This document shows, one piece after another, positions 14,489 through 52,200 of a stretch of DNA of 64,000 nucleotides. Each line of letters starts with the position of its first letter. Within the stretch, counting starts at the first letter, position 1. The DNA is from Setophaga petechia (Eukaryota; Chordata; Aves; Passeriformes; Parulidae). Made by a program: the position numbers and the translations under genes. The stretch spans positions 32,667,924 to 32,731,923 of the forward strand of contig JANCRA010000006.1 of the NCBI GenBank assembly GCA_024362935.1, in the 5' to 3' direction. The notes beneath the pieces are model-generated. The model saw only the letters and a program-made list of their open reading frames with translations, had not been told where the DNA came from and did not search any database.

Positions 14489-16770
14489 TTTCCCCGTGGG
14501 CGGGACCTGCAATCCCTGGCAAAGTGTCCCTTTTTCCCACAACTCCAGCAAGTCCCTCTCGTGTTTTGCTGGGATGGGGGAGCCGAACGGGTGGGCTGTG
14601 TCGGCTGGGTACACGTCGCCGCCACGTGTCCCGCCTGTCCACATTTAAAGCAAGCCAGCGCACTGGTTAGGGTGTGAACAGCTGCTTGTATGGGACTCAG
14701 CTGCTCTTCTTTTACTACATGTTTAATCATGTCTGCCAGGCTAGCACCGGCTGGCAGGGAGCGCAGTATGTCTTTGGTGACTGCATTACATTGTTGCCTA
14801 AGGCAGTCAGCAACCACCGGGCCCTTTGCCTGAGGAGGCAGGGTGGAGGTGTCCACAGCCGCCTGTAGCCTGTCTACGAATTGTGTAAATCCTTCACTTT
14901 CCCCTTGTTTTATGGTGGACCAGGGTGCTGGCTTGTCCACAACCCTAAAAGTTGAACGAATCGCCTCCCTGGCGGCTCGACAGCTCGCCCTGACCTCCTC
15001 AGCTCTGAGCAGTGCAGCTTGTTGTTGGGGTGTAGCTACATCATCATGTTTTCCCAGTAGCCGGGATAAACTCGAGCCGTGCAATGGCTGCCCCTCACCC
15101 CCTGTCCGAGCCAGCACAGAGGCACAGTTATCGGTCCAGTCCTGTTTAAAAACAATTAAACCTGCCCCGTCAAAAAGCATACGTGTAATTTGTACTATAT
15201 CACAAGGCAGCAAATCATCATTACTAAAAACTGCATCCACTAGCGTGGATACTACTCCGGAGTTAATTCCTTTTTCTGCAATAGCTTTAAGTATTGCTTG
15301 AACATCTTTAGAGTTTACTGGTGTATATGTTCTCTGTTGGTTGCCCTGCGCTCCTGTAATTCTCACTGGAAACGCATGCACAGCTGCCACGGGTGCCCAT
15401 TCAGCACAATCAATTTTTATTTGGCCCCAATCGGTGAGTTCGTATGATTGGTTCTTAATCTTGTTTGGAGATTTGTTTGGTTTCATACGAAACCGCTGTG
15501 TATCTGTGTGCTCCCTTTCCGAATCGCTGCCCGACTCGGTAAGGTCTGTGGAGCAGTCTGAAGAGGCGTTGCTCCTATCAAAGTCGGAAGTGGACTGAAA
15601 GCGCACTTCCTGTCTCCCCTGCCGTTTTGTTCGGCTTCGGCCCCGCCCCTCCCCTCGGGGGCGGTGTCGCCCTTCCCCTCGGAGGCGGCGGCGTCCCTCC
15701 CCTTGGAGGCTGTGCCGCTCCTCCCCCCAGAGGCGGTGTCGCCCCTCCTCTTGGAGGCGGTGTCGCCCCTCCTCTTGGAGGTGGTGTCGCCCCTCCTCTT
15801 GGAGGCGGTGTCGCCCCTCCTCTTGGAGGTGGTGTCGCTCCCACTCCCTGGGCTCGCCCTGCCCCTCACCGGGAGGGGTTTCTCCCTTATACGGTGGCGG
15901 CGGTGGGCGCAGCCCCCGGGCGAATGCCTGCCCCCCCGTTCCTCCCTGCGCCTGCGTGTCTGTGTGTGTCCACTCCCGGTACTGACCAGCGCCGGTCTGC
16001 TGCGCAGGCGTGCTTGCGGCCATTTCCCCCTCAGGGCATTTCCCGCCGCGAACACGCGGGCCCCGCCCCCCTCCCTGTCCGGCGGCGCCATTTTTGAATG
16101 GCGGCTGCAGTTCTGCCGCCCCTGTTTCAGTGCTGACTGCAGCCTCCACGCCGCGAGCTGCGTCCGTCAGTTCGCCCCAGAAACACCGCGCGCGCGTCTC
16201 TGCGGGGTGTGCCGAATCCGGAGGCGGCGGGGGACAAACAAACAGAGAAGACTCTGGTTTTTCGGGGGATATCGGGGGGGTTTTGGGACCCAGCTGGTCC
16301 CCCGGGGGGGTCAGGGTGTGCTCCGGGGTTTTTGGGGGATCTCCCAGAGGTTCTGGGGGATCTGGCTCAGGGTCCGGGGAGAATTGGGGGGTGCCCGGTC
16401 CCTGCGTGCCCGCGCTCCCGCCCGCACTGCCCGCGGGGGGGGTTTGGGTTTCTGCCGCCACTCCCACCTTTGGTGTAACCATCAGATGCGGCCGGGCGGC
16501 CGCCCAAACCTCCTGATTCTCTAAAGCTTGGCATAGAGCTGTCTCCACCTTCCCCCACGCCTTAAGAAATTTCCCACTGCCCGTGTTTTTTGTGTCCTCT
16601 GCCAGAGCAACGGTACACTTCTGCCACATATCTGCATGCAATATTTCTACCGGACATTCAACCGTCCCCAGCTCCAGGAGTCTCTGCAAAGCGAGAGATA
16701 AGTACCTGGGCTCGCATTTAATTCCCCATTGTATACATACTGATTCAACGACCTTTGCTAGAGCTTCCAT
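14164..16770 (-). CDS. gag: ERV-A Gag polyprotein (868 aa)
   Basis: The start is placed at the ATG of MEALAKVV (16768-16770). The frame is open 63 codons further up, but that part runs through the primer site into the LTR. Domains in order: matrix; a long Pro/Gly-rich region with a PPPPPY late-budding motif; a charged repeat region (15656-15845); capsid with a major homology region (QGESEGFTQFVDRL); two nucleocapsid zinc knuckles (CFKCGQAGHVAATC and CWSCGKKGHFARDC); and a Gln/Pro-rich C-terminus. There is no MGxxx(S/T) myristoylation signal at this start. 868 residues is long for a Gag, largely because of the charged repeat and Pro-rich parts. The frame is intact. Confidence 0.92.
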   Translation of the reverse strand: MEALAKVVESVCIQWGIKCEPRYLSLALQRLLELGTVECPVEILHADMWQKCTVALAEDTKNTGSGKFLKAWGKVETALCQALENQEVWAAARPHLMVTPKVGVAAETQTPPAGSAGGSAGTQGPGTPQFSPDPEPDPPEPLGDPPKTPEHTLTPPGDQLGPKTPPISPEKPESSLFVCPPPPPDSAHPAETRARCFWGELTDAARGVEAAVSTETGAAELQPPFKNGAAGQGGGRGPRVRGGKCPEGEMAASTPAQQTGAGQYREWTHTDTQAQGGTGGQAFARGLRPPPPPYKGETPPGEGQGEPREWERHHLQEEGRHRLQEEGRHHLQEEGRHRLQEEGRHRLWGEERHSLQGEGRRRLRGEGRHRPRGEGRGRSRTKRQGRQEVRFQSTSDFDRSNASSDCSTDLTESGSDSEREHTDTQRFRMKPNKSPNKIKNQSYELTDWGQIKIDCAEWAPVAAVHAFPVRITGAQGNQQRTYTPVNSKDVQAILKAIAEKGINSGVVSTLVDAVFSNDDLLPCDIVQITRMLFDGAGLIVFKQDWTDNCASVLARTGGEGQPLHGSSLSRLLGKHDDVATPQQQAALLRAEEVRASCRAAREAIRSTFRVVDKPAPWSTIKQGESEGFTQFVDRLQAAVDTSTLPPQAKGPVVADCLRQQCNAVTKDILRSLPAGASLADMIKHVVKEEQLSPIQAAVHTLTSALACFKCGQAGHVAATCTQPTQPTRSAPPSQQNTRGTCWSCGKKGHFARDCRSRPRGNGRGRGRSGHTQPPPALNVRRPVQVNPQWGGGYILLPQETINTAPPTQIQLQGSATPQVMPPHTTPIQLQGSATPQIIPPHTSVPQAAQAPQSQQGTSQTGIPGWPWS
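14245..14352 (-). repeat. 54-bp direct duplication in the gag/pro overlap
   Basis: The units start at 14245 and 14299. The duplication is in frame in both reading frames (54 = 18 codons): gag repeats IQLQGSATPQ and pro repeats DTVAGLCNTT. The copies differ by a few bases. Confidence 0.85.
14488..14494 (-). promoter_or_regulatory. gag-pro -1 frameshift slippery heptamer GGGAAAC
   Basis: The minus strand reads G GGA AAC, in the gag frame (lowest base 14488 = 1 mod 3; gag stop 14164 = 1 mod 3), a few codons after the second zinc knuckle. A -1 slip reads GGG AAA CGG in the protease frame. This heptamer class is known from the gag-pro junction of type D betaretroviruses. Confidence 0.9.
15656..15845 (-). 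repeat. 24-bp coding minisatellite in ERV-A gag
   Basis: About eight units of 24 bp encode an 8-residue repeat of the form HRLQEEGR or RRLRGEGR. The four central units (about 15740-15835) are near-identical; the outer ones have diverged. The array inserts a highly charged Arg/Glu stretch between the matrix/late-domain region and the capsid. Period 24 keeps frame when copy number changes. Confidence 0.88.
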
Positions 16771-16877
16771 GGAGATCTGGCCGGTCCGAGGGGCGTCCCC
16801 CTCCGTGTCGCAGTCGGTCCTGCCGCTGTGACCGCTGTCCTCTGTCCAGGAGAAATCCCGATCCCGGGGCTTTTCGT

Positions 16878-16895
16878 TCCCGGGTTTCGGCACCA
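16878..16895 (-). other. ERV-A primer-binding site, tRNA-Phe type
   Basis: The minus strand reads TGGTGCCGAAACCCGGGA, two bases after the LTR end. It is complementary to the 3' end of vertebrate tRNA-Phe (UCCCGGGUUUCGGCACCA). Confidence 0.88.
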
Positions 16896-16897
16896 CT

Positions 16898-17238
16898 TGT
16901 TGCCTTCTGGTTCCGAAGGCAAGGCGACCTGGTTCCAGAGTACAGCACGGCGACCCCACCCTGGGCCACTCGGGCTAGAAGACGACGCTTACACCAATGT
17001 GGTGGACAGTCAAATAGGCTTTATTGTCTCTTCTCTAAGGGTTTTATAGTTTGGGGGGTTTCCTACGTAAAAAGGGGCTGGGGGTTAGTACAGGGTGGTA
17101 CTGGTACCTCCTATGTTAGGGGGGTTACATTCCTTAGTTACATTCCGAGGGTGATCCTTATCTCTGGGAGGAGGGAAGAGAGGCTTCTTGCAGCTTTCCG
17201 TAACAGCCCGTTATCTTCCGAGCGCCTGTCCCTCCACA
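16898..17238 (-). repeat. ERV-A 5' LTR
   Basis: 341 bp with TG...CA ends, the mate of 8796-9135. It carries the same TATA-like and AATAAA elements in minus orientation. The Phe-type primer site lies 2 bases downstream, which fixes the element's orientation. Confidence 0.93.
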
Positions 17239-21481: not shown

Positions 21482-24165
21482 TCAGTGTCCATTTGTAGAG
21501 GAATCATCTGAGTGATCACTCTCATCATCTGCATCCGAGTCATCATTCAATGATTCATCCGCCTGATGCCTTTCAGGTTGGTCACGGTTTCCATCCTGCT
21601 CGTCGGCTGGATTCTGCCTCTGCGGTCGCAGGTCAGGGTGAACACATTTCGAAGGTACCCAGCGTACCCCAGTATCTGTGGATACACAAGCATACCCGCG
21701 CCCCAAAGGGCTAAGGTCATAGGGACCTTCCCACTGTTTGGTGACTAAATTCCACACCTGAACCTTTGCCCGAGGCTGATGTGCCTCGTCCGCAGCCTGC
21801 AACGAGAGATGGTGATTCAAAATGACAGGGTTATCTGAGTTCTGTGGCACAGTGAGATGATTAATTGTGCACAAAGCTTTTGCCAACCGACTTTGCGGGG
21901 TTTCACCCTGCATTCCCCGTTTTTGTTTTTGAAGAACCCGCTTCAGAGTACCATGAGTGCGTTCCACAATAGCCTGACCAGTCGGAGAATGAGGGATACC
22001 AAACTTGTGTGAGACACCCCACAACTGCAGGAACTGCCGCACCTTTTGCGATGCGTAAGCAGGACCATTGTCGGATTTCACAGCAGAAGGTGTGCCCAGA
22101 ACGGCAAAGGCCTGCCTCCAGTGGGCGAGGACATCACGGGCCTTGTCCCCAGTGTGAGCCGAAGCCCACATTGCAGAGGAGAACGTGTCCACCGTGACAT
22201 GCGCATACTTGAACTGGCCAAACTCGGCAATCTGGGTGACATCAGTCTGCCAAAGCTCCAAGGCCCTAAGGCCTCTGGGGTTTACCTCTGCTGGCAAAGG
22301 CGGAGCAAGTGCATGGCAGTCATCACACGACTCAACAATGTCACGAGCCTCAGTTGGCGTCAGCTGAAACTGCTTCTGCAGGGTATGTGCGTTTTGGCAG
22401 GAAAACCCATGCAATGCCTCGGCCTGCGCGAGTGTATCAGGCTGAGGCGCCACCCATGCTGGGTTAGCCAACTTGTCAGCCCTCGCGTTACCTTCCACAA
22501 TAAAGCCTGGCAAATCAGTGTGACTCCTCACATGCAGAACATAAAAAGGATGAACCCGGGCCTGAATAGCACACCACAAGGTCTTCAGTAAATGGAACAA
22601 GGCAGGATTACTGACCTCCTTCAAAACCGAATGACCCAACCGTTGTGCGATATCAGCCACGTAGGCGGAATCCGTGACCAAGTTGAAAGGTTCCTGGGAA
22701 AATTTCTCAAATGCCATGACAGCAGCCCTCAATTCAACCAATTGGGCTGACCCATCCTCATGGCCTTCCAGAACCTGCCACTCAGATCCATCCCGCCAGG
22801 TAACAATGGCCTTTCCTGTTTACCCTGAATTGTCAGTAAAGACGGTGGGTCCTTGCACAGGTTCCTGACTATTTTTGGGCCGCAAAGAAATTTGTGTAGA
22901 CTTTGCCATATGCAGTAGCCTATGGCTGGGCAGATGATAAGTGATCTGCCCTGAAAAATTTTCCAGAGCACTTTGCAGGGACACGCTGTTTGCAAAGCTC
23001 CAGTCAAAATCCTCCCGTTGCACCGGGAGTATGATCTTTGCAGGATCCGCACCCATCAATTGCAAACACCATTGACGGCATTTGATTATCAAGCGAGCAA
23101 TCAGCTCAAACAATGCAGTTGCCATCTTCTGCGGCTGATGGGGCAGGAAAACCCATTCCAGAACGTGCAAGGAATCAGACCATTTGTCTCTCCATTGGCC
23201 AATGATGCCCGTGGGATACGAATCCGGAGTGGTGATGAACGCAGTGACATCAACGGAGGGATCAATGCGATAACCTTGGCAAGCCAAAACAGCTTGCTGA
23301 ACCACCTCCAACGCCTCACGTGCCTCAGGGGTCAGTGTGCGAGGTGACTTCAAATCAGAGTCTCCTTTCAACAAATCATACAGAGGAGACAGCTGTGCGT
23401 CGGTTAGTCCCAAGTATGGACGTAACCAAGTGATGACACCTACCAATTTCTGAACATCATTCAGTGTCTTCACAGAATGCACAAATTGCACCTCCTGGTG
23501 ACGGATCGTCCGTTCCAGAATGTTGACCCCCAAGTACTTCCAAGGTGGTTGTTGTTGCACCTTTTCTGGAGCCACCTGCAGTCCATGAGCATGCAAAACA
23601 TCGAGCAACCGAGGCTGAATCCTCAGCAGCTCATCCTGGGTGGATGCGGCCACCAAAATGTCGTCCATATAATGATACAAACGTGCATCAGGAAACTGCT
23701 TGCGAACTCCAGACAGGTATGGGCCACATACCACTGGCATATGGCAGGAGAATTGCGCATTCCCTGAGGCAATGTCCTCCATTGATATCTCTGTGCGGGC
23801 TCAGCCTCGTTAATCACTGGCACCGAGAAGGCAAACTCCGGTCTGTCATCGGGATGCAAAGGAATTGTAAAGAAAGAATCCTTCAGATCCACAATGAGGA
23901 CCGGCCAGTCTGCGGGAAGCATGGTAGGCGATGGCATGCCCGCCTCCAATGTTCCCATGCTTTCCATCACGGCATTAACCTTTTGGAGGTCTTGCAACAA
24001 CCTCCATTTCCCAGATTTCTTTTTGATGCAGAAGACAGGAGTGTTCCAGGGACTGGAAGTAGGCTCCAGATGACCCTGGTCCAACTGCTCCTGCACCAGA
24101 TTCCGAAGAGTGTCGTATTTATCTTGAGGGAGGGGCCACTGCTTCTCCCAGACAGGTTTGTCCAC
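21482..24165 (-). pseudogene. pol: ERV-B pol (RT, RNase H, integrase), broken
   Basis: The RT start lies at 23623-24165 (SPWNTPVFCIKKKSGKWRLL, TLPQGMRNSPAICQW). The frame then shifts near 23725-23735, and the rest of RT with YHYMDD and the RNase H start reads on at 22820-23782. A TAA at 22820-22822 interrupts just after the RNase H TVFTDNSG. The same frame then resumes through RNase H (LVTDSAY, EGNARADKLA) and integrase (D,D,E in WQTDVTQ, KSDNGPAY, GQAIVERTHG) to 21482. The integrase ends in a strongly acidic tail of about 25 Asp/Ser-rich residues. At least one shift and one stop are needed to explain the frames, so no full Pol can be made. Confidence 0.85.
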
Positions 24166-34330: not shown

Positions 34331-34604
34331 GGAGTGGCTGAGCCTCAGAGGCAGGACCGTCCCAGTGGCTGCAGTGTTGTCAGGCAGTGCCTGCAGGCTC
34401 GGTGTGGTTCTGGCAGCTGTGGTCTCCCTACAAGTGAGGAATGGCAGCCCCTGCCTCAGGCCCAGTCAGAAACCCAACCAAGCGAGACCAGAGGGAGGAG
34501 ACCCTTTCCACCTCTCTTGGGCAGGGCTGCAAAACAGCCGCTGCATCTTCCTGCCCCTCTGTTTGGGGTGTGCTGAGCCCAGAGCCGGCCAGCTTGTGTC
34601 CTGC

Positions 34605-35069
34605 TGTTATAAGTAGCAATATGTTTGTTCATTAGTTAAATTAATAGCTGAATAATTCTTATAATATAAAAAGCAATAGTTAAATAGTTGTATTTGCTTG
34701 TAACTGTAACAAAAGCTGACCTGGCAAGAATTGCTGAGCTTGCAGAAACGTATAGTGCTTAGAATTGCTGAGCTTGCAGAAAATGTATAGTGCTTTGGAA
34801 ACATATGGTTGTAGTTAAGTCCTATAAGACAAAGTCCACCCAGCGAACAAAGCGGGCCCCCCTTCTCCTTCAAGACCACCAGAACAGGATACGTCATCCC
34901 GAGAGGAGAAGAAATAAAAGACCAGACCCAGAAAGGGGGGCGCGGACTTTGAGAGCAGATTTCTCTCAGTCGCCCAGCGCTGAACTTTTGCTTGTCACTG
35001 CTTGCTTTATAATCAAATAAATTCTGATTGGGAAAAGAAATTTACATGGTAAGGTTCTTCCTTATAACA
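34605..35069 (+). repeat. ERV-C 5' LTR
   Basis: 465 bp, TGTTATAAG to TTATAACA. U3 has a near-perfect direct repeat of about 34 bp (units about 34730 and 34764, AGAATTGCTGAGCTTGCAGA) that looks like a duplicated enhancer. A TATA-like GAAATAAAAG lies near 34909-34918. The polyadenylation signal AATAAA is at 35016-35021. Confidence 0.93.
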
Positions 35070-35071
35070 AA

Positions 35072-35089
35072 TGGTGCCGTGACTCGGAT
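35072..35089 (+). other. ERV-C primer-binding site, tRNA-His type
   Basis: Reads TGGTGCCGTGACTCGGAT, complementary to the 3' end of tRNA-His, two bases after the LTR. Confidence 0.88.
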
Positions 35090-35414
35090 CCAGGAAACGG
35101 GGCCCAGAAACTTCGGGGAGGCGCCCCCACCCCTTTTGGTGGGCTCCGGAGATCCTTGGGCCACCCGGTAACCTGGATCTGATGAACCTAAATTCGGTGA
35201 GCAAGCAAAAGAGTATACCGGTAACCCTGTAAACTTTGTGCACGAAGATCCAAGCGAAGACGCAGGACGCATGAGTATATAGGTGAACCGCTCGGTTGGG
35301 GTTGGGATCCCAGGGCACGGTGAATGAGACGTCCAAGTGCGGACGAAGTGAAAAGGGACCCTCCAGTAGTGCAGTTCTCGTAGCCCGCGAGGGAGCGAGC
35401 CACGACCGAGGGGT

Positions 35415-35434
35415 TGTGTGTGTGTGTGTGTGTG
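35415..35434 (+). repeat. (TG)n run in the ERV-C leader
   Basis: About ten GT units lie 16 bases upstream of the gag ATG. They extend the gag frame upstream as a Cys-Val run, which I consider untranslated. Confidence 0.85.
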
Positions 35435-35449
35435 GAGGTGCCTTGGAAG

Positions 35450-36931
35450 ATGGGGCAGAAGGAAAGCAAGCCTTCTGATCCCATGGGGGAGGGCCCCCGG
35501 TTACCCTCAATACCAAAGGATAGTCCATTAGGATTAATGCTTAAGTATTGGGATGATTCTCCCTCCAGAAAGGGGAAGGATAAGGCAAAAATGATAAATT
35601 ATTGCATGGTAGTGTGGGGCGGTAAGAAGCTGGAGTCAGGAAATGTTTATTGGCCCGTTTTCGGATCCTCCGAAGATTGGGTCTGCCAAGCCCTGAACAG
35701 CTTTGTGAATTCTAAAGAGCCAGTAAACCTGGAAGAGAGTGTTTATGCTAAATTATGGTTGGTAGGAAGTGATGAACAAATGACTAAGTTGTTCCCCCTT
35801 AAGGGAAGTCAAGGAGAGGAAGACAGAAAGAAAAAGTCTCGACTAGAGGAAGAGACTCCTATTTACCCTCCCCCGTATGTACCACCACCAGCCCCTCCCG
35901 TACTCCTTCCAAACGTGCCTCCGACATCTGCTCCTAATCAACAGCAGGTCACGAACTCCCCGGATTGCAGGAGGCGTACTCGGAGTCAGATGAGGACAGT
36001 AATTGATGAAGGAGAGAGCAGTGGGTTGTTCCCTCTCAGGGAAATAGCATTAGGAGGACCCCAAGCTGGGATGGGGTTTGTCACTGTCCCGTTAAACTCG
36101 GGAGATGTGCGCGAATTTAAGAAAGAGATGGGAAAATTATTAGAAGACCCTATAGGAGTGGCAGAAAGGGTGGACCAGTTCCTAGGGCCAAACATATATA
36201 CTTGGGTGGAAATGCAGTCCATTTTAGGCATCCTATTTACAACAGAGGAAAGAGGGATGATCAGAAGGGCTGGGATGAGGATTTGGGACACCCAGCATGT
36301 TCAAGGTCCTGCGGCTGATGTGAAATGGCCCTTACAAAATCCCAATGGGAACAATCAGGACCCCAACCATCGTGGTCATATGCAGGACTTAAGAGCTATC
36401 ATAATCCAGGGCATACGAGAGGCTGTGCCCTGGGGACAAAATATAAGCAAGGCATTCAGAGAGTGCCAAGGAAAAGATGAAACCCCCACTGAATGGTTGG
36501 AAAGATTAAGGAAAAGCTTTCAGTTATACTCAGGGGTTGATCCGGACACGCCAATGGGGCAAGCACTCCTGAAAACACAGTTTGTAGCTAAATCATGGGA
36601 AGACATTAGAAAGAAACTAGAAAAGTTAGAGGATTGGCAGGACAGAGGACTTGATGAATTGCTTAGGGAGGCCCAGAAGGTATATGTTAGATGGGAGGAG
36701 GAGGCACATAAAAGGCAAGTTCGGATGATGGTGGCGGCAGTCAGGGAGGGACAGCGAAACAACCCTCCACCACGGGAAAGAAATGGCATGAGGAGAGGTC
36801 CCCGGGATTTAGGAGGGCCCCCAACTGGAGGGAAAGAAGGAGCAGTGTGCTACTATTGTGGTGGGAAAGGACATATGAAGAGGGAATGTCGAAAGAGGCT
36901 TAGGGATGAAAAAATGTTTAAAGAAGATTAG
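35450..36931 (+). CDS. gag: ERV-C Gag polyprotein (493 aa)
   Basis: The start is the ATG of MGQKESKPSD. MGQ gives an N-terminal Gly for myristoylation as in gammaretroviruses; an upstream in-frame ATG in the TG run lacks this. Matrix is followed by a Pro-rich region with the late-budding motif PPPY (in IYPPPYVPPP), then capsid with a major homology region (ETPTEWLERLRKSF), then an Arg/Glu-rich stretch, and a nucleocapsid with one zinc knuckle, CYYCGGKGHMKREC. The length is close to that of known gammaretrovirus Gags. It ends in TAG at 36929-36931 with the pol frame continuing unchanged. Confidence 0.94.
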   Translation: MGQKESKPSDPMGEGPRLPSIPKDSPLGLMLKYWDDSPSRKGKDKAKMINYCMVVWGGKKLESGNVYWPVFGSSEDWVCQALNSFVNSKEPVNLEESVYAKLWLVGSDEQMTKLFPLKGSQGEEDRKKKSRLEEETPIYPPPYVPPPAPPVLLPNVPPTSAPNQQQVTNSPDCRRRTRSQMRTVIDEGESSGLFPLREIALGGPQAGMGFVTVPLNSGDVREFKKEMGKLLEDPIGVAERVDQFLGPNIYTWVEMQSILGILFTTEERGMIRRAGMRIWDTQHVQGPAADVKWPLQNPNGNNQDPNHRGHMQDLRAIIIQGIREAVPWGQNISKAFRECQGKDETPTEWLERLRKSFQLYSGVDPDTPMGQALLKTQFVAKSWEDIRKKLEKLEDWQDRGLDELLREAQKVYVRWEEEAHKRQVRMMVAAVREGQRNNPPPRERNGMRRGPRDLGGPPTGGKEGAVCYYCGGKGHMKRECRKRLRDEKMFKED

Positions 36932-36945
36932 GGAGGTCAAGGGCT
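36929..36945 (+). promoter_or_regulatory. Amber stop with read-through context between gag and pol
   Basis: TAG is followed by GGAGGTCAAGGGCT. Gag and pol are in the same frame (35450 and 36953 both 2 mod 3) and no other stop lies between. This matches the gammaretrovirus strategy of suppressing the UAG, where a G-rich spacer and a pseudoknot follow. The pseudoknot was not modelled. Confidence 0.82.
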
Positions 36946-39900
36946 CTATCTATTGGGGACCCAAATGTCATCGGAGCCCTTGGTAAAACTCAGAGTGGGT
37001 CCTCAGCACACCCCCATAACCTTCCTTGTAGATACAGGGGCCGAGAGATCAACAGTTCAATCTTTGCCCCCAGGATGCAAGATCTCATCTTCCACAGTAC
37101 AGGTTATTGGGGCAAGGGGAGAACCTTTCAAGGTTCCTGTAATTGAAGATGTTTTAATAGAATCAGAGAAGAAAATGGGGGTGGGATCACTATTATTAGT
37201 CCCCGAAGCTGATTACAATTTATTAGGAAGAGATTTAATGGTGGAATTAGGGATAAATGTAAATATTGAAGAAAAACAGTTGAAAGTCAAGTTGTGCCCC
37301 TTACGGGTCACTGACGAAGAGAAAATCAACCCAGAAGTCTGGTATACCCCTGATACTGTAGGAAGATTAAATATAGAACCCTTCACAGTCAAAATTCAAA
37401 ACCCAGAAATCCCAGTAAGAATAAAACAATATCCCATGTCAGATGAGGGGCGAAGGGGACTGAAACCAGAGGTAGAACGGTTAATCCGGCAAGGGCTCTT
37501 GGAACCTTGCATGTCTCCCTTCAACACCCCTATTCTGCCTGTAAAGAAACCAGATGGGAAATACCGATTAGTACATGATTTAAGGGAAATAAATAAGAGA
37601 ACCATTGCCCGGTTTCCTGTAGTAGCAAACCCACACACATTGCTGAGCCAATTGAAACCAGATGATCAGTGGTATAGTGTTATAGATTTAAAAGACGCCT
37701 TTTGGGCATGGCCCTTAAAGGAAGAATGTAGAGACTATTTTGCATTTGAATGGGAAGATCCCGATACTCACCGAAAGCAACAATTAAGGTGGACAGTACT
37801 TCCCCAGGGACACACTGAATCCCCAAATTTATTTGGGCAGGCACTAGAGCAAATAATGAGATCTTATACCCCAAACCAAGGAATAACTCTTGTTCAATAT
37901 GTAGATGACTTATTAATTGCTGGAAAGAGCGAAGAATCAGTTAGGGAAGAGAGCATTAAGCTTCTAAACTTTTTAAGCATCCAGGGGCTGAAGGTGTCTA
38001 AAAGCAAACTGCAATTTGTAGAGGAAGAAGTAAAGTATCTAGGACACCGACTCAGTAAAGGAACTAAAACATTAGACCCAGGGAGGGTTAAGGGGATCCT
38101 CTCCCTTCCTCCCCCAAGAAATAAGAGACAAATCAGGCAGCTATTGGGTCTCGTAGGATACTGCAGACAATGGATTGAAAACTTTAGTGGTAAGGTAAAA
38201 TTTTTGTATGAAAAACTAACTGCTGAAGGTGTGATAAAATGGACTGAGAAGGATGATGAATCATTAGAACAATTAAAAGAGGAATTAGCCAACGCCCCAG
38301 TGCTAAGCCTCCCGGATGTTAGGAGGCCTTTCTATTTGTTCGTTAACACTGAGGCAGGAGTAGCATTTGGGGTGCTGGCTCAGGACTGGGCTGGCAGTCG
38401 AAAACCAGTAGCATTTATTTCTAAACTACTAGACCCCGTAAGTAGGGGGTGGCCAACATGTTTACAGATTATAGTGGCAACAGCCCTCTTAGTAGAGGAA
38501 GCTTTCAAAATTACTTATGGAGGAGAACTGAAAGTCTGTACCCCCCATAATATACGGGCAGTATTGCAACAAAAGGCAGAAAAATGGATAACAGATGCAA
38601 GGCTCCTGAAATATGAGAGCATTTTGCTCTCATCTTCTAGGTTGAAACTTGAAACCACCTCTCTGCAAAACCCTGCAGAATTTTTGTTTGGATACCCACA
38701 GGAGAATTTAACCCATGACTGCCTACATAGTATAGAAAAGCAAACAAAAATTAGGCCAGACCTCGAAGAAGAAGAACTGGAAGAGGGAGAAAGGCTATTT
38801 GTGGATGGATCCTCTAGGGTTGTCGAGGGAAAACGAATCTCTGGATATGCGGTTGTGGGAGGTAAAAATTTAGAAATAATGGAATCTGGACCTCTGAGTC
38901 CTAGTTGGTCAGCCCAGGCCTGTGAGTTCTATGCAGTATTGAGGGCCTTGAAACTCTTGGAAGCTAAAGTTGGGACCATCTATACGGACTCAAAGTATGC
39001 CTTTGGAGTGGTACATACTTTTGGGAAAATTTGGGAAGAAAGAGGGTTAATAAACTCCCGAGGAAGAGAATTAATACATCAGGAACTAATTACTCAGGTA
39101 CTACAAGCTTTAAGAGGCCCAAAGAAAATAGCAATAGTACATGTTAAAGGACATCAAAAGGGCCTCTCCCATCTGACTAGAGGAAACAACACAGCAGACA
39201 GAGAAGCGAAGGAAGCTGCCCTCAGAAAATTCCAGGGTCAGGGAATAAAAAAACCACTAGATAATGAGAAAATTCATGTCCTGAGCTTCACAGCCCAGGA
39301 AAAGGAGAAATTAGACAAAATGGGAATAAAAGACACTGGGGGTATTTGGAAATTGCCAGACGATAGGGAGGTGCTGCCAAAATCTATGGCCCGAAGAATA
39401 ATGCAGCAACTGCATGACCAGACTCATTGGGGAACCCAAGCCTTAGTAGATCAATTTACCATTAAGTATATGTGTATAGGAATTTATGATATAGCAAAAC
39501 AAGTAGTTAGGGGTTGTATAACATGCCAAAGAGTAAATAGACATCAAGTTAGAGAAAGGATTCCAGGAGGAAGGGAATTAGCACACCGGCCCTTTTCACA
39601 TGTACAAATAGATTTTACCCAATTACCAAAAGTAGGGAGATACAAGTACTTATTGGTATTGGTAGATCATCTAACCCACTTTGTAGAAGCATACCCTACA
39701 TCGCGGGCTACTGCAAATGTGGTAATTAAAACCTTGTTAGAAGAAATAATCCCCAGGTATGGAATTGTAGAAATACTAGACTCTGATAGGGGCCCCCATT
39801 TTGCAAACAAGGTAATGAGAGAGGTAACCATGGCCTTAGGCACTAAATGGCAATATCACACCCCTTGGCATCCTCAAAGCTCAGGGAGGGTGGAAAGGGC

Positions 39901-40456
39901 AAATGAAGAAATCAAGAAGCAACTCACCAAACTCATGGTAGAAACTAAAATGTCTTGGGTCAGATGTTTACCCATGGCACTGCTAAACATTAGAACCCGA
40001 CCCAGGACGGATGTAGGAATCTCTCCTTTTGAAATGCTTTATGGAATGCCTTATGACTTAGAACTCCCGGGAAACCATCCTTGTATACAAGATAGTCAAA
40101 TTCAGAGTTATATACAACAGTTAATGAAACGGAGGGAAGAATTAAAAGGAAAAGGGCTATTGGTACAAAGACCCCCCTTGGATGTAATGATGCATAAACT
40201 TAAACCCGGAGATAGAGTTCTAATTAAGACTTGGAAAGAGACAACCCTAACACCCCAGTGGGAAGGTCCCTATGTTGTTCTGTTTACCACAGAAACAGCC
40301 ATCAGAACTGCTGAAAAAGGCTGGACACATGCAAGTCGGGTGAAAGGACCCATCACTGCAGACACCCCTTGGGAAGTGACCAGTCGCCCCGGAGATCTAC
40401 GGTTAACTCTTCGGAAGGCACAGAAGCCTGCACCCGTGGGTAATGTGAATGACTGA
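36932..40456 (+). CDS. pol: ERV-C Pol: protease, RT, RNase H, integrase
   Basis: 1174 codons plus stop follow the amber codon; the first ATG is at 36953. The protease active site is LVDTGAERS. RT has SPFNTPILPVKK, VLPQGHTESP and the gamma-type catalytic YVDD. RNase H has FVDGSS, YTDSKYAF and NNTADREAKEA. Integrase has an HHCC zinc region (ending CITCQR), then D,D,E in VQIDFTQLP, LDSDRGPHF and SGRVERANEE, and a C-terminal domain. Order, length and protease-in-pol layout match gammaretroviruses. Open throughout. The stop overlaps the start of the next ORF by 8 bases. Confidence 0.95.
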   Translation, partial: GGQGLYLLGTQMSSEPLVKLRVGPQHTPITFLVDTGAERSTVQSLPPGCKISSSTVQVIGARGEPFKVPVIEDVLIESEKKMGVGSLLLVPEADYNLLGRDLMVELGINVNIEEKQLKVKLCPLRVTDEEKINPEVWYTPDTVGRLNIEPFTVKIQNPEIPVRIKQYPMSDEGRRGLKPEVERLIRQGLLEPCMSPFNTPILPVKKPDGKYRLVHDLREINKRTIARFPVVANPHTLLSQLKPDDQWYSVIDLKDAFWAWPLKEECRDYFAFEWEDPDTHRKQQLRWTVLPQGHTESPNLFGQALEQIMRSYTPNQGITLVQYVDDLLIAGKSEESVREESIKLLNFLSIQGLKVSKSKLQFVEEEVKYLGHRLSKGTKTLDPGRVKGILSLPPPRNKRQIRQLLGLVGYCRQWIENFSGKVKFLYEKLTAEGVIKWTEKDDESLEQLKEELANAPVLSLPDVRRPFYLFVNTEAGVAFGVLAQDWAGSRKPVAFISKLLDPVSRGWPTCLQIIVATALLVEEAFKITYGGELKVCTPHNIRAVLQQKAEKWITDARLLKYESILLSSSRLKLETTSLQNPAEFLFGYPQENLTHDCLHSIEKQTKIRPDLEEEELEEGERLFVDGSSRVVEGKRISGYAVVGGKNLEIMESGPLSPSWSAQACEFYAVLRALKLLEAKVGTIYTDSKYAFGVVHTFGKIWEERGLINSRGRELIHQELITQVLQALRGPKKIAIVHVKGHQKGLSHLTRGNNTADREAKEAALRKFQGQGIKKPLDNEKIHVLSFTAQEKEKLDKMGIKDTGGIWKLPDDREVLPKSMARRIMQQLHDQTHWGTQALVDQFTIKYMCIGIYDIAKQVVRGCITCQRVNRHQVRERIPGGRELAHRPFSHVQIDFTQLPKVGRYKYLLVLVDHLTHFVEAYPTSRATANVVIKTLLEEIIPRYGIVEILDSDRGPHFANKVMREVTMALGTKWQYHTPWHPQSSGRVERANEEIKKQLTKLMVETKMSWVRCLPMALLNIRTRPRTDVGISPFEMLYGMPYDLELPGNHPCIQDSQIQSYIQQLMKRREELKGKGLLVQRPPLDVMMHKLKPGDRVLIKTWKETTLTPQWEGPYVVLFTTETAIRTAEKGWTHASRVKGPITADTPWEVTSRPGDLRLTLRKAQKPAPVGNVND

Positions 40457-41123
40457 ATTAGGGGACAGAGAACTGTACCGACTGAGACTCTTGGTAAGAA
40501 AACCCCTACAGGAACTGGAACGGGAGTTTAAGTGTCCTCTACCATGGAAAACCTGGAATGAACTGACACTTGCTCTTTCAGTAGTGGCTGAAGTGAGGCG
40601 AGAATTATTCGATTGCACCGAGTGTCTTAAATGTCGGGAATCTTCTTGCCGGGCGTGGGTAAAAATCTTTTGTGGGGGCTGTAAAAACAAATGGTGGATT
40701 TTCCAGTCACAGTTGGTGGGAAGCACATGGTGTCTTACTTGTGATTGGCATTGGAGAAGAGCAAATCCATTAAGAGCCTTAAGACAATTCATACAAATCC
40801 CTGGAAGGCGGGAGATCCCCGACAGAGAAGCAGTGTCACTAGTTGAAAACCTAGAACAGAGAAGGAATTGGGCCCTGGCATGGGAATTCCAACACCAATT
40901 GCATAGGATTACAAGTCAAAACCAGACAGTCATATTAACTACCTTGTGTAAGAAGGGAATCCATGTTTCTCTGGTGTGGCAAGTGAGGCCTGACGAGTGG
41001 AATACCACGATTCGCCGCTATTCCCGAGTTCATAAACAACAAAAACGTAAAGAACGTAGGGAAGAGCAACGCAACTCTAGGAAATTGAGAGAAAAGGGAA
41101 TAAAGACAGAGGGTGAACCCTAA
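40449..41123 (+). CDS. ERV-C unknown accessory ORF, Cys-rich with basic tail (224 aa)
   Basis: I do not recognise this protein. It starts at an ATG inside the last codons of pol (frames differ) and ends 104 bases before env. Features: a cysteine cluster at residues 56-98 (C56, C59, C62, C67, C75, C78, C95, C98) with CxxC pairs CTEC, CLKC, CGGC and CLTC, suggesting a metal-binding fold; six Trp nearby; and a strongly basic C-terminal stretch (195-217, KQQKRKERREEQRNSRK), compatible with nuclear or RNA targeting. There is no signal peptide or membrane span. Simple gammaretroviruses have no gene here. By position and composition it could be a regulatory protein of a complex retrovirus, but that is inference. 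Expression would need a spliced mRNA or re-initiation. Confidence 0.72.
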   Translation: MTELGDRELYRLRLLVRKPLQELEREFKCPLPWKTWNELTLALSVVAEVRRELFDCTECLKCRESSCRAWVKIFCGGCKNKWWIFQSQLVGSTWCLTCDWHWRRANPLRALRQFIQIPGRREIPDREAVSLVENLEQRRNWALAWEFQHQLHRITSQNQTVILTTLCKKGIHVSLVWQVRPDEWNTTIRRYSRVHKQQKRKERREEQRNSRKLREKGIKTEGEP

Positions 41124-41227
41124 GTAGGTGTGAGACTTAGGTCCTGTAAAGCTCGCTGGGGACAGCAGAGTTCTTCATAAAACCAAGGAGATCCTTTGCC
41201 TGGAGGCCAGAAAGCCTGCCCTTAGGA

Positions 41228-43582
41228 GTGGGGGCAGGAGTTAAGGAGATAGCCCAAATAATGCACCCCCTGAAGACTACCCCTGCTGCCGAGAAGATAA
41301 TGATCCCTGCAGACCGATGCACCCGGGCTGGCAGGCGAGGCAGAGAGGTAAGGGATAGTGGGGGAGAGCAATGGGCCACAGGAATAAAAACGGAGCACAG
41401 GAAAGCTCCAGATAAAAGAGGTATAATTACGAAAGACAGAAGAAATTTGTTGCTAGGAACCTGGCCTGATTGGCGAGCTACCTTAATTATTATAATTCTG
41501 AGCTTCCCGGCTGCCTGGGGAAACCCCCTTCAGCCTTACAAAGGGAACCTGACCCCTGACTGGTCTCAGGCCTTTTCGAGGTCTACCGGATCTATGGGGG
41601 ATACCGCAGGTTTAAATTTACAAACATTAGTACTGCATGATGGTCTGCCGTACGCTAGACACGAATGGAAGAAGCAGAAAACCTGGCAGCTCCAAGGAAT
41701 AGTGGGAGAACAAATTAATATTGGATGTCGAATAGTTAATGGGTCTGATTATACTAGCGCAATTACAATTAGTGTTTCCATGAGTCAGGAGGATAAACAA
41801 ATAGAGTGTAAATACCCAATTGCACGAGACTGCTGGCAAAACTTCACATTAACTCACACAGCAGAGATAGTCTGCCTCTGGTCAAATGATATACAGGCCC
41901 TTTCTTTTAAATTTATAATAGCTGCTAAAACACACTCTACCACTATTGAACCTCACACTATCACCACTCCACCCACACCACCAGTCATACTCACCCCAAA
42001 AATTTTCAAAATAGGACCTTACATAATTAGGAAAACTGGTCAACAACAAATATTATTCAATCCAGCATGGTCCCTCAAACAGGTTGAACTGCTGATGCAA
42101 ATCAACGTTTCAGACATCCAGCCAGCATGTTCTCCGTTTTTACAAACATCCTTTGAAGGCTGGACCACTTGGCTCCGGAAACGCAGCTCTTTTAAAACAA
42201 GGAAACTTAGAGACGTGACCGGTGTTCTAGGTACAGGATTGGGAATTCTGAATAGTATTGACTCGGAAGTACTAATGAGCAAATTGGCTGCTATGACTAG
42301 AGATCTATCCAAACTACAGCAACCACTGAAGTCATCTCTGTTAGCCTTGGGGACACACCAGTGGATGCTGTCAAATATTTTGCCAAATTGGGAAAAGGTA
42401 AACGTGAACGATCATAAATTGGTGATTGATACACTTAGTGCCACACAAAATAATGTTTCTTTAGCCCTCAGCTGCATCCAGGCACAACTGTGGATGCAGT
42501 CGGTCTCTGCCTCGATTATAAGAGAAGGCGAGGAAGGCACTTTCCCCACAGAAATTCGGAAAATAATCTGGGACAATGCCACTGAATTTGAAAGAGAATT
42601 CCAATCCTGGTGGAAATTGGTGAATTTTACCCATAACGCTATTTCAAACACAGCTACTGCTTTTATCCTAATCATACAAAATGCCTCTGTACACCCAGTT
42701 TTTCCTGTTATTGCATTAGGAGTAAACCATGACGGAGCTGTTCTCTATCCTACAGAACATAGAGGATGGGCCCGTCAGTTTGGAGATAAATGGCAAACGG
42801 TTGATTTGGAATCTTGCATTGTCCAAGAACAATTGGGGTTTATCTGTGAGGGTAATGTGATTATAGCTCAAGATATTTGTTTAGACACGGAGCAAAATAT
42901 CTGTCAATTTGAGATTCGTCCTAACGAGGCTTCTAAAACCGTTCTTGTATATATAGGTAATGGGTGTGCATGTTTTAGAACTATTTGTGACTCTGTGCTT
43001 ATAGATAATATTGTGGTGGATACAAAAAATCACTCAAACTTCTGTACTTGCAACTTTACTAAGATTACAGGGTGTGACATTACTTATGAAGCTACAGTTA
43101 CCTCTCACTACCTACTGCAATCCAACTACACACTGATTCACAAATTACTGCCCACCCCGATTGGGATGGACAACACCCTAGTGAGACAACTGCTGCTCCA
43201 TCAAGACCTGATCAAAATCCTCGAGAAAATCAAGAAGAACGGACAGAAGACCCTGGTGACTGTTCATCATGACGTAGGAAAAATACACCGAATTATAGAG
43301 AGGGTGAAGCATGATGGCGAGTATAATTGGTGGGATACTCTCTTTGGGTGGACCCCCACTACCACAGGTGTCCTAAATAGTATATGCCATCCCATTGTTG
43401 TTCTTTTCATTCTGGCTGTACTTGGTTTTATTCTGTTAGTAATTCTATTTGTTATGAATTGGGATATGAGGAAAAAGCTAAGGAAATTAGCGCCTATAAT
43501 TAATGCACAAAGTTTAACGGACGAAGCAGCTTATTTAACACTTGCTAGGAATGAACTAAAAAGATTTAATGAACAAAATTGA
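41228..43582 (+). CDS. env: ERV-C Env-like glycoprotein of atypical architecture (784 aa)
   Basis: The frame from the first ATG gives a leader of about 98 residues: a basic first part (about 30-73) and a hydrophobic signal (84-97, ATLIIIILSFPAAW). A basic site LRKRSS near residue 319, with another Arg/Lys group a few residues on, is followed by a Gly-rich hydrophobic stretch (VTGVLGTGLGILNS) that may be a fusion peptide. The surface part would be only about 220 residues and the membrane-anchored part about 465. A membrane span lies at about 723-746, then a 38-residue tail with YLTL, a YxxL-type sorting motif. About ten N-glycosylation sequons are present. Neither CWLC nor CX6CC nor an immunosuppressive-domain motif was found. 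It ends five bases before the polypurine tract. Calling it Env rests on position, topology and sequons. Confidence 0.8.
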   Translation: MGAGVKEIAQIMHPLKTTPAAEKIMIPADRCTRAGRRGREVRDSGGEQWATGIKTEHRKAPDKRGIITKDRRNLLLGTWPDWRATLIIIILSFPAAWGNPLQPYKGNLTPDWSQAFSRSTGSMGDTAGLNLQTLVLHDGLPYARHEWKKQKTWQLQGIVGEQINIGCRIVNGSDYTSAITISVSMSQEDKQIECKYPIARDCWQNFTLTHTAEIVCLWSNDIQALSFKFIIAAKTHSTTIEPHTITTPPTPPVILTPKIFKIGPYIIRKTGQQQILFNPAWSLKQVELLMQINVSDIQPACSPFLQTSFEGWTTWLRKRSSFKTRKLRDVTGVLGTGLGILNSIDSEVLMSKLAAMTRDLSKLQQPLKSSLLALGTHQWMLSNILPNWEKVNVNDHKLVIDTLSATQNNVSLALSCIQAQLWMQSVSASIIREGEEGTFPTEIRKIIWDNATEFEREFQSWWKLVNFTHNAISNTATAFILIIQNASVHPVFPVIALGVNHDGAVLYPTEHRGWARQFGDKWQTVDLESCIVQEQLGFICEGNVIIAQDICLDTEQNICQFEIRPNEASKTVLVYIGNGCACFRTICDSVLIDNIVVDTKNHSNFCTCNFTKITGCDITYEATVTSHYLLQSNYTLIHKLLPTPIGMDNTLVRQLLLHQDLIKILEKIKKNGQKTLVTVHHDVGKIHRIIERVKHDGEYNWWDTLFGWTPTTTGVLNSICHPIVVLFILAVLGFILLVILFVMNWDMRKKLRKLAPIINAQSLTDEAAYLTLARNELKRFNEQN

Positions 43583-43586
43583 TCAT

Positions 43587-43602
43587 AAAAAGAGATGGGG
43601 GA
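43587..43602 (+). other. ERV-C polypurine tract
   Basis: AAAAAGAGATGGGGGA-type run ending two bases before the 3' LTR, interrupted by a single T. Confidence 0.85.
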
Positions 43603-43604
43603 AT

Positions 43605-44083
43605 TGTAATAAGTAGCAATATGTTTGTTCATTAGTTAAATTAATAGCTGAATAATTCTTATAATATAAAAAGCAATAGTTAAATAGTTTTTGCTTGTAA
43701 CAAGTATTTGCTTGTAACTGTAAAAAAAGCTGACCTGGCAAGAATTGCTGAGCTTGCAGAAACGTATAGTGCTTAGAATTGCTGAGCTTGCAGAAAATGT
43801 ATAGTGCTTTGGAAACATGTGGTTGTAGTTAAGTCCTATAAGACAAAGTCCACCCAGCGAACAAAGCGGGCCCCCCTTCTCCTTCAAGACCACCAGAACA
43901 GGATACGTCATCCCGAGAGGAGAAGAAATAAAAGACCAGACCCAGAAAGGGGGGCGCGGACTTTGAGAGCAGATTTCTCTCAGTCGCCCAGCGCTGAACT
44001 TTTGCTTGTCACTGCTTGCTTTATAATCAAATAAATTCTGATTGGGAAAAGAAATTTACATGGTAAGATTCTTCCTTATAACA
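43605..44083 (+). repeat. ERV-C 3' LTR
   Basis: 479 bp. It has the same U3 repeat, TATA-like and AATAAA elements as the 5' LTR. It carries an extra ~14 bases near 43690-43705 (a local duplication of TTTGCTTGTAAC). About four substitutions separate the two LTRs by eye. Confidence 0.93.
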
Positions 44084-44289
44084 CTGCTGTGCCAGGAGCG
44101 TTCTGGGCGGGCAGGAGAAGGGCTGCGTGCACGGCGGAGCGTCCTGCAAGGGGCTCACCAGAGCCTCCTGCGGGAACAGGCTGCGGGGCACGGAGGGTCT
44201 GGGACATCGCACCATCACCAATATGATCTAGTGAAGCCAAATTTATTATCCTTTAAAAGACTATATTTAAAATAAATCTCTACTGTCCA

Positions 44290-49246: not shown

Positions 49247-52200
49247 TCATTTGAAGAGCAGCAAGAGTGGAGGTGAGGAGGAAGGGGGCTGATCTGATGC
49301 CTTGGACTTGAGTGGAGGAGGAGCCCATCCCTCAGAGCCTGTTTCACCTGCAGCCCCTTCACATTTTACCTGCAGGAGCTCCTTGGCAGACCAGCGCTGC
49401 TCCTCGTCTCTCTGCAGGCAGCAGCTCAGGAAGTCACGCAGCAAAGCCGAGAGGAGCTTGGGCTGCCGCAGCTTTGGGGTCCCTACTGTGGCTATCAGGT
49501 GCCGAGCCTGGAGAAGAAAAAACCACGAGGCTTCACCCGCTGCTTTCACATCTCTAAGTGCTCTCCCAGATCCCTTTGTTTAACCTGTGTTCTGCAGTGG
49601 CAGTTTCTGCCCTGGCAGAGACCCAGAGATGACTTTACCAACAAAAAACCCAAACCCCAATGCAGCCGCAGCTTTTGCACCATCCCACAGATCTTGCCTT
49701 GGTAGCTGATTGCATTGACTGACCTAGTTAGTGGGAACTGCATCACCACAAGCACAATTCCTTCCCTGAGGATTCACACCAGCTTGAGAGGCTTTTTGGA
49801 AGAGGGACTTTGCTATATGAACTAATTTCAAGGATTACTACATGAAAGGCATCTCTGCAGTGCTTGTTGGTCCTTTAAGCACAGCTGCCATAGAACAAAG
49901 CTCATCAAGCTTTTTGTGCTCTTCTTGAAAACAATGGGAATTGGAAGGAAAGAAAGGAAATGCATCAGTTAATGCCCAGGGAAGGAAATAAAGATTTACA
50001 ATCTCATCTTCAACACAGACACATTAAGATGCCTACACAAATGTATTGGGATGAAAATGGCTGCTTGGGCACACAGGAACCACCTGCAGCTCTGTCTCTC
50101 AGCAGTCTGAAAATTTCAGCTTTCCATTTTTCGGCAAAAGAGAAATTTTCATGGTCAGAAGAAAGAGAGGTGCCATCCCTATGGTCACCCTCTGCTCATT
50201 TGGCTACTCAAGTCAATGCATTAGTGATAGGCCCATCCCAGAAAATGCCAGGAAACAAACAGGAGGTTTTGGCAGGCTCTCCACATCACCAGGCTTCGGC
50301 TTGGTGACACAGAGAACGTGCCTTGGGCTAGGAGAGAAACACGGTCACTAAATGCAGTGCAGCAGCACTGCACAAGAAGCAGAAGAGACTCTGTGGCCTT
50401 TACACCCTCATGCCCAGGTTTCAGGCATGTTTCCCAGTGAGAAGAAACTGCACAGTGGCTTAGGTTCCTCTCTAAAGACCACAGTTTTAGAAACTTTGTT
50501 GGCTTTGGGTTTCCTTCCTTCATTTATGGAAAGATAACTGAAGTTCTGCGATGCTTCTTTCCTGTTACTGGGGCCATCTCCACAGACAAAAGAACTGGAA
50601 CCACTTATAACCCAAAGGAAAGTGTTGCCTGAGAATGGAGTTTGTTTGCATGTGGTAAGGCTTGAGTTCCCCACCGAGGCAACCAAAACTAGAGCAGATG
50701 CTGATGTGTTGCAGGACATTTGTAGGAGGGGCCTTGGTGGAAGTAGTTCCAGCAGATGGCAATGGGATTTTGTCCAATGGCACGCAGGACAGGGGGCAGG
50801 TGAGAAAGACAGTGGGATCAGTGAGTATTTGCTCCTTACCGTGCCAGAACTCTCGCTCCAGTAAGGTGGTTCTTGTTCTATCATTTCAATTCCCACTATC
50901 CCCAAAGACCATATGTCCACTTTGGGGCCATATGGGTGACCTGTCACCATTTCAGGCGCCATCCACCAAGGAGTCCCGGCTAGCGAGCACGGTCTGCTCT
51001 GCTCAGAGTTGAGCTGAGTAGAGAGGCCAAAATCAGCTGAGGAGAAAGCAAAATACTGGTTTGATTTGAATTCTGTGCAATTAGGAAAGCAAGCAAAAGA
51101 ATTCCCCAGTAGAAGTTTGAAAATGTGCTGTTGAATCTCCTGGCATTGGCAAGTTAAAAAATCCCCCCATTTTTTACCCTGCCTCCAGCAGTGGCTTTTG
51201 TTCTTTGGAAACTTTAGACTTGTAACTCCCTCCCTCTGGAAGGGACATCCAGAGAGCAACAGCACTCTTGACTGCTTGTTCCTCGGCATACCTCTGTGCA
51301 CATTGCAACTGTGTCACCAGCTCACAGCGGGTGTCCCTGCGCTGCCACCAGCACCATTTTTGGGGAGCTGGCAGTCACTCCAAGCAGCCCCACAGCCACA
51401 TCCCTGGAAGGCTGCAGCTGACCAAGAATATACTGACCCAGCTTGACAGAGCCGTCGGTTTTGAGAAGGATGTTGCTGCTTTTCACATCTCGATGGATCA
51501 CATCGTTTGAGTGAAGAAAATCCAGTCCTTGCAGGCACTGAGAGAGAAAACAGAAAGTGGTGGGCAAAAAGAAGTGATGTGATTTCATCACACAAGAAAG
51601 AAAGAATCTAAAAGATTCCCTCTCCAGGGGAATGGGGAGTAATGGCAGAACACAGTGCCACTGAGAGGAAGAGCTTGCTGCTCCAACACTTGCAGAGCAG
51701 GACCTTTCTAAGGAAAGGCACGTCAGCTTTTGAAAGAGGAACAACACCTGCTTTTGTAGGCTGTCCCCTGCAAACCAGCCAGGATGACTCCTGCTGCAGT
51801 GGATGTGCTCAGAAGCAAGGAGCATTTTGGCTGCACTCCTATCCTTTTTAGCTGAGGACTGAGAGAAATGTGTCTCTCTCTTTTTTCTTTGCTGTTTGTT
51901 TCAAATCCTGCCACCAGCATCTTTGCTTTTACAGGCAAGGAATGCAGTGAAGACAGACTCCAGGCAAACATTTAGAGAAGCAAGGTGGAGAACAGCAAAT
52001 AGAAATACAAGAGACAGAGCGAGAATACAACAGCAGGAGATAAGAGTCCTGGCATTGAGTACAGGGAGTGCAGGGGCAATGGCAGGCCTTTCACTTGAGG
52101 TGCTCTTACTTGCCCATAGGATAGCAGCAACACAGAAACAAGCTTGGCACATGAAACCTCTCCTGTTCTGAGCCCCTGTTTGCCAGACAATCCTGCCCAA

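What the first reader, a model, noticed from the sequence alone, without database searches (positions are those of the whole stretch)
40449..41123. Undescribed accessory ORF between pol and env of a young gamma-like ERV
A 224-codon open frame sits where simple gammaretroviruses have nothing. It has eight clustered cysteines (four CxxC pairs, residues 56-98) and a basic tail (195-217), the composition expected of a nuclear or RNA-binding regulator. It has stayed open in a provirus whose other genes are also open. A complex avian gamma-like retrovirus lineage would be novel to me.
Basis: partly seen in the sequence, partly recalled or inferred. Interest (0 to 1): 0.92.

Follow-up and report, generated by a model that had tools for sequence, protein, structure and literature searches.

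The report
Extra gene in bird endogenous retrovirus
A recently inserted retrovirus copy in what looks like a songbird genome carries, between its enzyme and envelope genes, a small extra open frame for a basic, probably zinc-binding protein that resembles nothing I could find, so this virus was probably more elaborate than the simple viruses it otherwise resembles.

Summary
A 224-codon frame (40449-41123, +) lies between pol and env of a complete young provirus (34605-44083; LTRs differ by 4 substitutions and one 14-nt indel). Eight of its ten cysteines fall in residues 56-98, with four overlapping CxxC motifs (7 of 50,000 permutations reach that many); the tail is basic. An open run this long arose in 1 of 20,000 Markov sequences. 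Two searches of about 5.8 billion proteins found two relatives: a 98% identical 224-aa protein and a 91% identical 192-aa one that has lost one cysteine and ends exactly before the basic tail. No Pfam, PDB-sequence, Pol, Env or host relative was detected; AlphaFold failed (pLDDT 42-44). Pol is gamma-like, but Env is not gamma-type: it lacks CX6CC and belongs to a bird-wide family that includes OVEX1 ORF3 (47% identity). Most likely it is a real accessory gene of a passerine class I sub-lineage, coding for a zinc-binding, basic, probably nuclear RNA regulator. That it is a gene is fairly well supported, though codon usage is weak; function is inferred. Selection and distribution could not be tested: no DNA of relatives was obtained. 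New variant of a known kind.

The parts
34605..35069 (+). 5' LTR (465 nt), terminal inverted repeat TGTTATAAG/CTTATAACA
   Evidence: 4 substitutions and a 14-nt indel against the 3' LTR
34601..34604 (.). target-site duplication CTGC (5' copy; 3' copy 44084-44087)
   Evidence: read from sequence
35072..35089 (+). primer-binding site, looks complementary to tRNA-His (recalled)
   Evidence: sequence
35450..36931 (+). gag (493 aa): Gag_p30, one zinc knuckle, PPPY, N-terminal MGQ; TAG stop in frame with pol
36935..40456 (+). pol (protease, RT, RNase H, integrase with MLV-type C-terminal domain)
40279..40293 (+). predicted splice acceptor upstream of the accessory ATG (7th best of 790 AG sites in the provirus; recalled approximate weight matrix); first exon base 40293
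   Evidence: prediction only
40449..41123 (+). accessory ORF, 224 aa, 27 kDa, pI 9.8
40614..40742 (+). Cys cluster, residues 56-98 (C56 C59 C62 C67 C75 C78 C95 C98)
41025..41099 (+). basic tail, residues 193-217 (12 K/R of 25), helical in a low-confidence model
41261..43582 (+). env (773 aa from the first ATG), OVEX1-ORF3-type, no CX6CC
43605..44083 (+). 3' LTR (479 nt)

Best explanation
The ORF is a real accessory gene of a passerine class I retrovirus sub-lineage (gamma-like Gag-Pol, OVEX1-type Env). It would be translated from a spliced mRNA whose acceptor lies in the end of pol (best candidate 40293; inferred). Its product would be a 27-kDa basic protein with an N-terminal helical part, a Cys-rich core that binds one or two zinc ions (inferred from the CxxC motifs) and an Arg/Lys-rich C-terminal helix that acts as nuclear signal and RNA contact. 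Most likely it enters the nucleus and regulates viral RNA, either export/splicing or transcription. Shown here: the frame, its context, the non-random Cys motifs, and a near-identical full-length protein in another data set. Everything from splicing onward is inference.
For: Open frame unlikely by chance in this stretch (1 of 20,000); CxxC count and Cys clustering non-random (7 and 53 of 50,000); A-rich composition like the viral genes; a 98% identical 224-aa protein and a 91% identical 192-aa protein, source label lgn, which keep eight and seven of the eight clustered cysteines; compact packing with an 8-nt overlap with pol; a well-scoring acceptor 156 nt upstream, and the best of 830 donor-like sites at 41347 in the env leader, both compatible with complex splicing. 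[quoted passage not shown]
Against: No match at a curated cut-off in Pfam, none in PDB sequences at E<=10, and only the two near-copies in two protein searches, although 110 Env relatives are held. Codon usage only weakly positive, with an antisense frame scoring higher. AlphaFold gave no fold. The 91% protein has C56Y and lacks the basic tail. No RNA data, no dN/dS. The ATG has a weak context and follows an ATG-TGA and a 4-codon upstream ORF. A Cys cluster plus basic region also suggested a Tat-like role for the SnRV 3'ORF, where an out-of-frame mutation had only a minimal effect (PMC12193657, abstract and passages).
Confidence: 0.45

Rival explanations
1. A real accessory gene, but a counter-restriction or assembly factor: a zinc-stabilised, Trp-rich basic adaptor that removes a host antiviral protein, analogous in position to lentiviral vif. 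The Arg-rich tail would bind RNA or the particle rather than serve nuclear functions.
For: Same place and similar size as vif (recalled), overlap with the pol end, 12 Trp and zinc-type Cys.
Against: No family match that would link it to any known accessory protein; birds lack the APOBEC3 genes that vif counters (recalled).
Confidence: 0.2
2. A non-functional open frame: sequence between pol and env that carries only cis signals (splice acceptors, leader) and is open because the provirus is young.
For: Weak codon signal and a higher-scoring antisense frame; no relatives beyond the near-copies; the 91% protein is shortened and has lost one Cys; acceptors 40582 and 40713 lie inside the frame.
Against: Open-run and CxxC statistics; the frame is kept in a second full-length protein with 5 residue changes and over 192 residues with 17 changes.
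Confidence: 0.2
3. A captured host gene or fragment, as KIT-ligand between pol and env in CrocERV29.
For: Capture between pol and env is documented in CrocERV29 (PMC4299795, passages).
Against: No host protein at E<=1 or E<=10 in two searches of a set that includes annotated bird proteins (bird sources seen); virus-like A-rich composition. A very diverged source is not excluded.
Confidence: 0.1
4. A decayed or shifted piece of pol, or of the extra N-terminal SU module seen in the Zonotrichia and Prinia Env relatives.
For: Some close Env relatives carry an extra SU module upstream of the shared part; the window Env does not.
Against: No significant blastp or phmmer match of the ORF to the 110 Env-family proteins (best E 0.78), none by blastx of 40300-41400 or hhalign with a 12-row Env profile (probability 0.15%), and only chance-level tblastn hits (E >=2.1) elsewhere in the window, including the provirus's own genes.
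Confidence: 0.05

Closest known systems
OVEX1 (chicken ERV locus; LOC422926 covers its ORF3; PMC2717909)
   Same: Its ORF3 is homologous to this provirus's Env: 47.5% over 482 aa; both lack CX6CC (paper; here).
   Different: OVEX1 is degenerated and without typical LTRs; its Pol is not related to the class I element that ORF3 resembles; its authors found no obvious accessory ORFs.
Gammaretroviruses (MLV type)
   Same: Gag_p30, one zinc knuckle, gag-pol in frame across a TAG, MLV-type RT and integrase C-terminal domain, 4-nt target duplication.
   Different: Non-gamma Env and an extra ORF.
Snakehead retrovirus (SnRV) and walleye epsilonretroviruses
   Same: Complex fish retroviruses with several accessory ORFs; the SnRV 3'ORF also has a Cys cluster and a basic region (PMC12193657, passages).
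   Different: The SnRV 3'ORF overlaps the env end, not the pol end; not compared by sequence here.
acc3/acc4 of ray-finned-fish foamy-like ERVs (PMC5512871)
   Different: 465 and 334 aa, in foamy-like elements; not compared by sequence here.
Lentiviral vif
   Same: Position over the pol end, similar size, zinc-type residues (recalled).
   Different: Different virus class; Pfam reported no match of the ORF to any accessory-protein family.
CrocERV29 with captured KIT-ligand (PMC4299795)
   Same: An extra gene between pol and env of an endogenous retrovirus.
   Different: That gene is a recognisable host cytokine; this one has no recognisable host relative.

Membership tests
Gammaretrovirus-like (class I) Gag-Pol | Gag_p30, MLV-type RT/RNase H and integrase C-terminal domain | tested here: met
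   Pfam; best PDB sequence matches are RT/RNase H p80 chains, MLV/XMRV-type (virus name recalled), E 4e-157
Gammaretrovirus-like (class I) Gag-Pol | gag and pol in one frame separated by a stop codon | tested here: met
   TAG at 36929-36931, pol continues in frame
Gammaretrovirus genus, whole genome | gamma-type Env with CX6CC | tested here: not met
   no CX6CC and no CXXC in the 773-aa Env
Gammaretrovirus genus, whole genome | no accessory gene (simple genome) | tested here: inconclusive
   224-codon ORF between pol and env present, but not proven to be a gene
OVEX1 ORF3-type Env family | homology over the C-terminal part and shared absence of CX6CC | tested here: met
Complex retrovirus accessory gene | ORF outside gag/pol/env conserved in independent viruses or proviruses | tested here: inconclusive
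   one full-length and one shortened near-copy only; independence of loci unknown
Complex retrovirus accessory gene | purifying selection on the frame | not testable with these tools
   no DNA of relatives obtained (genome search did not complete)
Complex retrovirus accessory gene | own spliced mRNA | not testable with these tools
   only acceptor/donor scores
Rev/Tat-like nuclear regulator | Arg-rich basic region with nuclear/RNA-binding activity | tested here: inconclusive
   12 K/R in 25 residues; activity not testable
Known zinc-finger family | match to a curated profile | tested here: not met
   no Pfam match at curated cut-off for the ORF, three fragments and both copies

The most novel reading that the evidence does not exclude
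A complex class I retrovirus lineage infected songbirds recently and evolved, independently of lentiviruses, deltaretroviruses and epsilonretroviruses, a new zinc-dependent nuclear RNA regulator encoded between pol and env, coupled to multiple splicing (strong donor-like site in the env leader) and to an OVEX1-type Env.
Probability: 0.28. Interest if true: 0.8.

Novelty: new variant of a known kind. Interest (0 to 1): 0.6.

Why it matters
Gamma-like retroviruses are treated as simple (recalled). A songbird lineage with an orphan regulatory-type gene would add an independent origin of retroviral complexity that bird genomes could test directly. The same provirus also ties OVEX1 ORF3, a bird-wide gene whose nature its discoverers left open, to a retroviral Env family that still occurs in a young, open provirus.

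Tried and rejected
Origin from pol or env: no significant match by blastp/phmmer to 110 Env-family proteins (best E 0.78), by hhalign to a 12-row Env profile, by blastx of 40300-41400, which hit only P0002 and P0003, or by tblastn to the rest of the window beyond chance (E >=2.1). Host 3CxxC zinc domain, suggested to me by the FCxxCxxxW pattern: not among Pfam's reports even at E<=10 on three fragments and both copies, though HMMER's filters drop most weak matches. Structure: AlphaFold with 3 rows pLDDT 42.1, residues 26-126 alone 43.7; I ran no fold search on such models. DNA relatives: viral contigs with the ORF, pol and the Env alignment, genome contigs with the Env alignment and phages with pol gave none; these are viral, prokaryote and phage collections, so this is no evidence of absence in birds. 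Rfam over 34500-44200: none at gathering score. The protein searches would miss relatives below about 45-50% identity (my estimate) and proteins outside 123-392 aa.

Papers: PMC2717909, PMC4299795, PMC5388530, PMC5512871, PMC6523648, PMC3758190 and PMC12193657 were seen as passages only; others as search listings. No description of this ORF appeared in the listings of the ten searches, which cover open-licence papers only.

Full report
What is there. The window holds a complete provirus at 34605-44083 (+). The LTRs are 465 and 479 nt and differ by 4 substitutions and one 14-nt indel. They carry 9-nt inverted ends and are flanked by CTGC on both sides. The primer site reads as tRNA-His (recalled). 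With a recalled songbird rate of 2-3e-9 per site and year, 0.86% divergence gives roughly 1.4-2.2 million years. gag (35450-36931), pol (36935-40456, in frame after TAG) and env (41261-43582) have no internal stops.

Classification. Gag has Gag_p30, one zinc knuckle and PPPY; Pol has MLV-type domains and matches gammaretroviral RT best among PDB sequences. Env has no Pfam family, no CX6CC and no CxxC. One search lists 110 relatives at E<=1e-5 (it scored only the 7997 candidates sharing most words); those with an organism name are birds. A tree of 31 rows that I picked (30 of the 110, plus the window) puts it beside Zonotrichia leucophrys (100/99) in a set of seven passerine rows (100/100). The 873-874-aa protein that includes chicken LOC422926 forms its own branch of six rows (100/100). 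LOC422926 lies in OVEX1 and covers its ORF3 (PMC2717909, passages). So the host is most likely a passerine, and the provirus is a class I Gag-Pol with an OVEX1-ORF3-type Env, not a standard gammaretrovirus.

The ORF. It starts 8 nt before the end of pol and runs for 224 codons. In first-order Markov sequences of the 807-bp interval such a run appeared in 1 of 20,000. Eight of ten Cys fall in 43 residues (53 of 50,000 permutations) and there are four overlapping CxxC (7 of 50,000); in Markov proteins the figures are 14 and 2 of 20,000, while the total number of Cys is not remarkable (1760 of 20,000). It has twelve Trp, pI 9.8 and a basic tail with 12 K/R in 25 (797 of 25,000 permutations). Against these, codon usage is only weakly virus-like: 0.045 bits per codon, where windows of gag, pol and env give 0.054-0.22 (scored with the same genes that trained the model), with 190 of 2000 null sequences as high and one antisense frame higher (0.072).

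Relatives. Two database searches, the second with dense words over residues 26-125 and E<=10, found only P0002 (224 aa, 98%) and P0003 (192 aa, 91%), both labelled lgn, which I take to mean Logan assemblies. They may come from the same host species or even the same locus. P0002 differs at 5 of 224 residues and P0003 at 17 of 192. Of the 17, three fit loss of a CpG of the window sequence (R25Q, D55N, R68W) and two fit a CpG gain; the direction is unknown. All eight clustered Cys are kept in P0002, seven of eight in P0003 (C56Y). P0003 ends at residue 192, just before the basic tail, either because the copy is cut there or because its contig ends. This fits ordinary decay of an older copy and says nothing firm on selection. 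None of the 110 Env-family proteins, some of which include pol parts, matches the ORF. Three lgn contigs of up to 4.7-6.9 kb carry an Env at 50-59% identity (P0008, P0011, P0045), yet no ORF relative was found: the ORF may be confined to a sub-lineage, may evolve faster than Env, or may lie outside those contigs.

Expression. A recalled, approximate weight matrix ranks an acceptor at 40293 seventh of 790, 156 nt before the ATG. Acceptors at 40582 and 40713, inside the ORF, rank 14 and 15 and could serve env; 41206 and 41226, just before env, rank 59 and 80. The best donor-like site of 830 is at 41347 in the env leader, the second at 35048 near the LTR end. Between 40293 and the ORF lie ATGs at 40329 (a 4-codon ORF) and 40443 (ATG-TGA). 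The ORF ATG has a weak context. All this is prediction.

Mechanism. A Cys-rich core with CxxC motifs often binds zinc, and an Arg/Lys-rich helix commonly gives nuclear entry and RNA contact (general knowledge). I therefore hold a nuclear regulator of viral RNA to be most likely (0.45), then a counter-restriction or assembly factor (0.2), a non-functional frame (0.2), host capture (0.1) and a viral duplication (0.05). The SnRV 3'ORF is a warning: the same kind of composition led to a Tat proposal that an out-of-frame mutation did not support (PMC12193657, abstract and passages).

Novelty. [quoted passage not shown] I found no report of one in an avian class I retrovirus in the listings of ten searches of open-licence papers. 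It is a new variant of a known kind, with function and distribution open.

Noticed in passing
9308-16959 (-): A second provirus-like set of long ORFs on the minus strand: Gag_p24 with two zinc knuckles, RT with thumb domain and integrase, and a gamma-type TLV_coat Env (E 5e-113): apparently a class II element with a gamma-type Env; PMC3758190 (passages) discusses such swaps.
   Followed up: partly
41261-43582 (+): Env is homologous to OVEX1 ORF3 (LOC422926), whose retroviral nature its discoverers left uncertain; this young open provirus supports ORF3 being a true Env.
   Followed up: yes
41347 (+): The best donor-like site in the provirus (GAG/GTAAGG) lies in the basic env leader, as would suit a doubly spliced small product; not followed, since that would need joining env exons.
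   Followed up: no
35048 (+): The second-best donor-like site lies near the end of the 5' LTR, before the primer site, so spliced RNAs might lack the primer site.
   Followed up: no
Env relatives P0004, P0005 (also P0009, P0019 by eye): Some Env relatives carry an extra SU-like module upstream of the shared Env; the window Env does not.
   Followed up: partly
50411-51825 (-): Protein-kinase domain pieces in two ORFs, probably exons of a host gene or pseudogene.
   Followed up: no
22823-23782 (-): A further pol fragment with RT thumb domain (E 1e-23), remnant of another retroelement.
   Followed up: no
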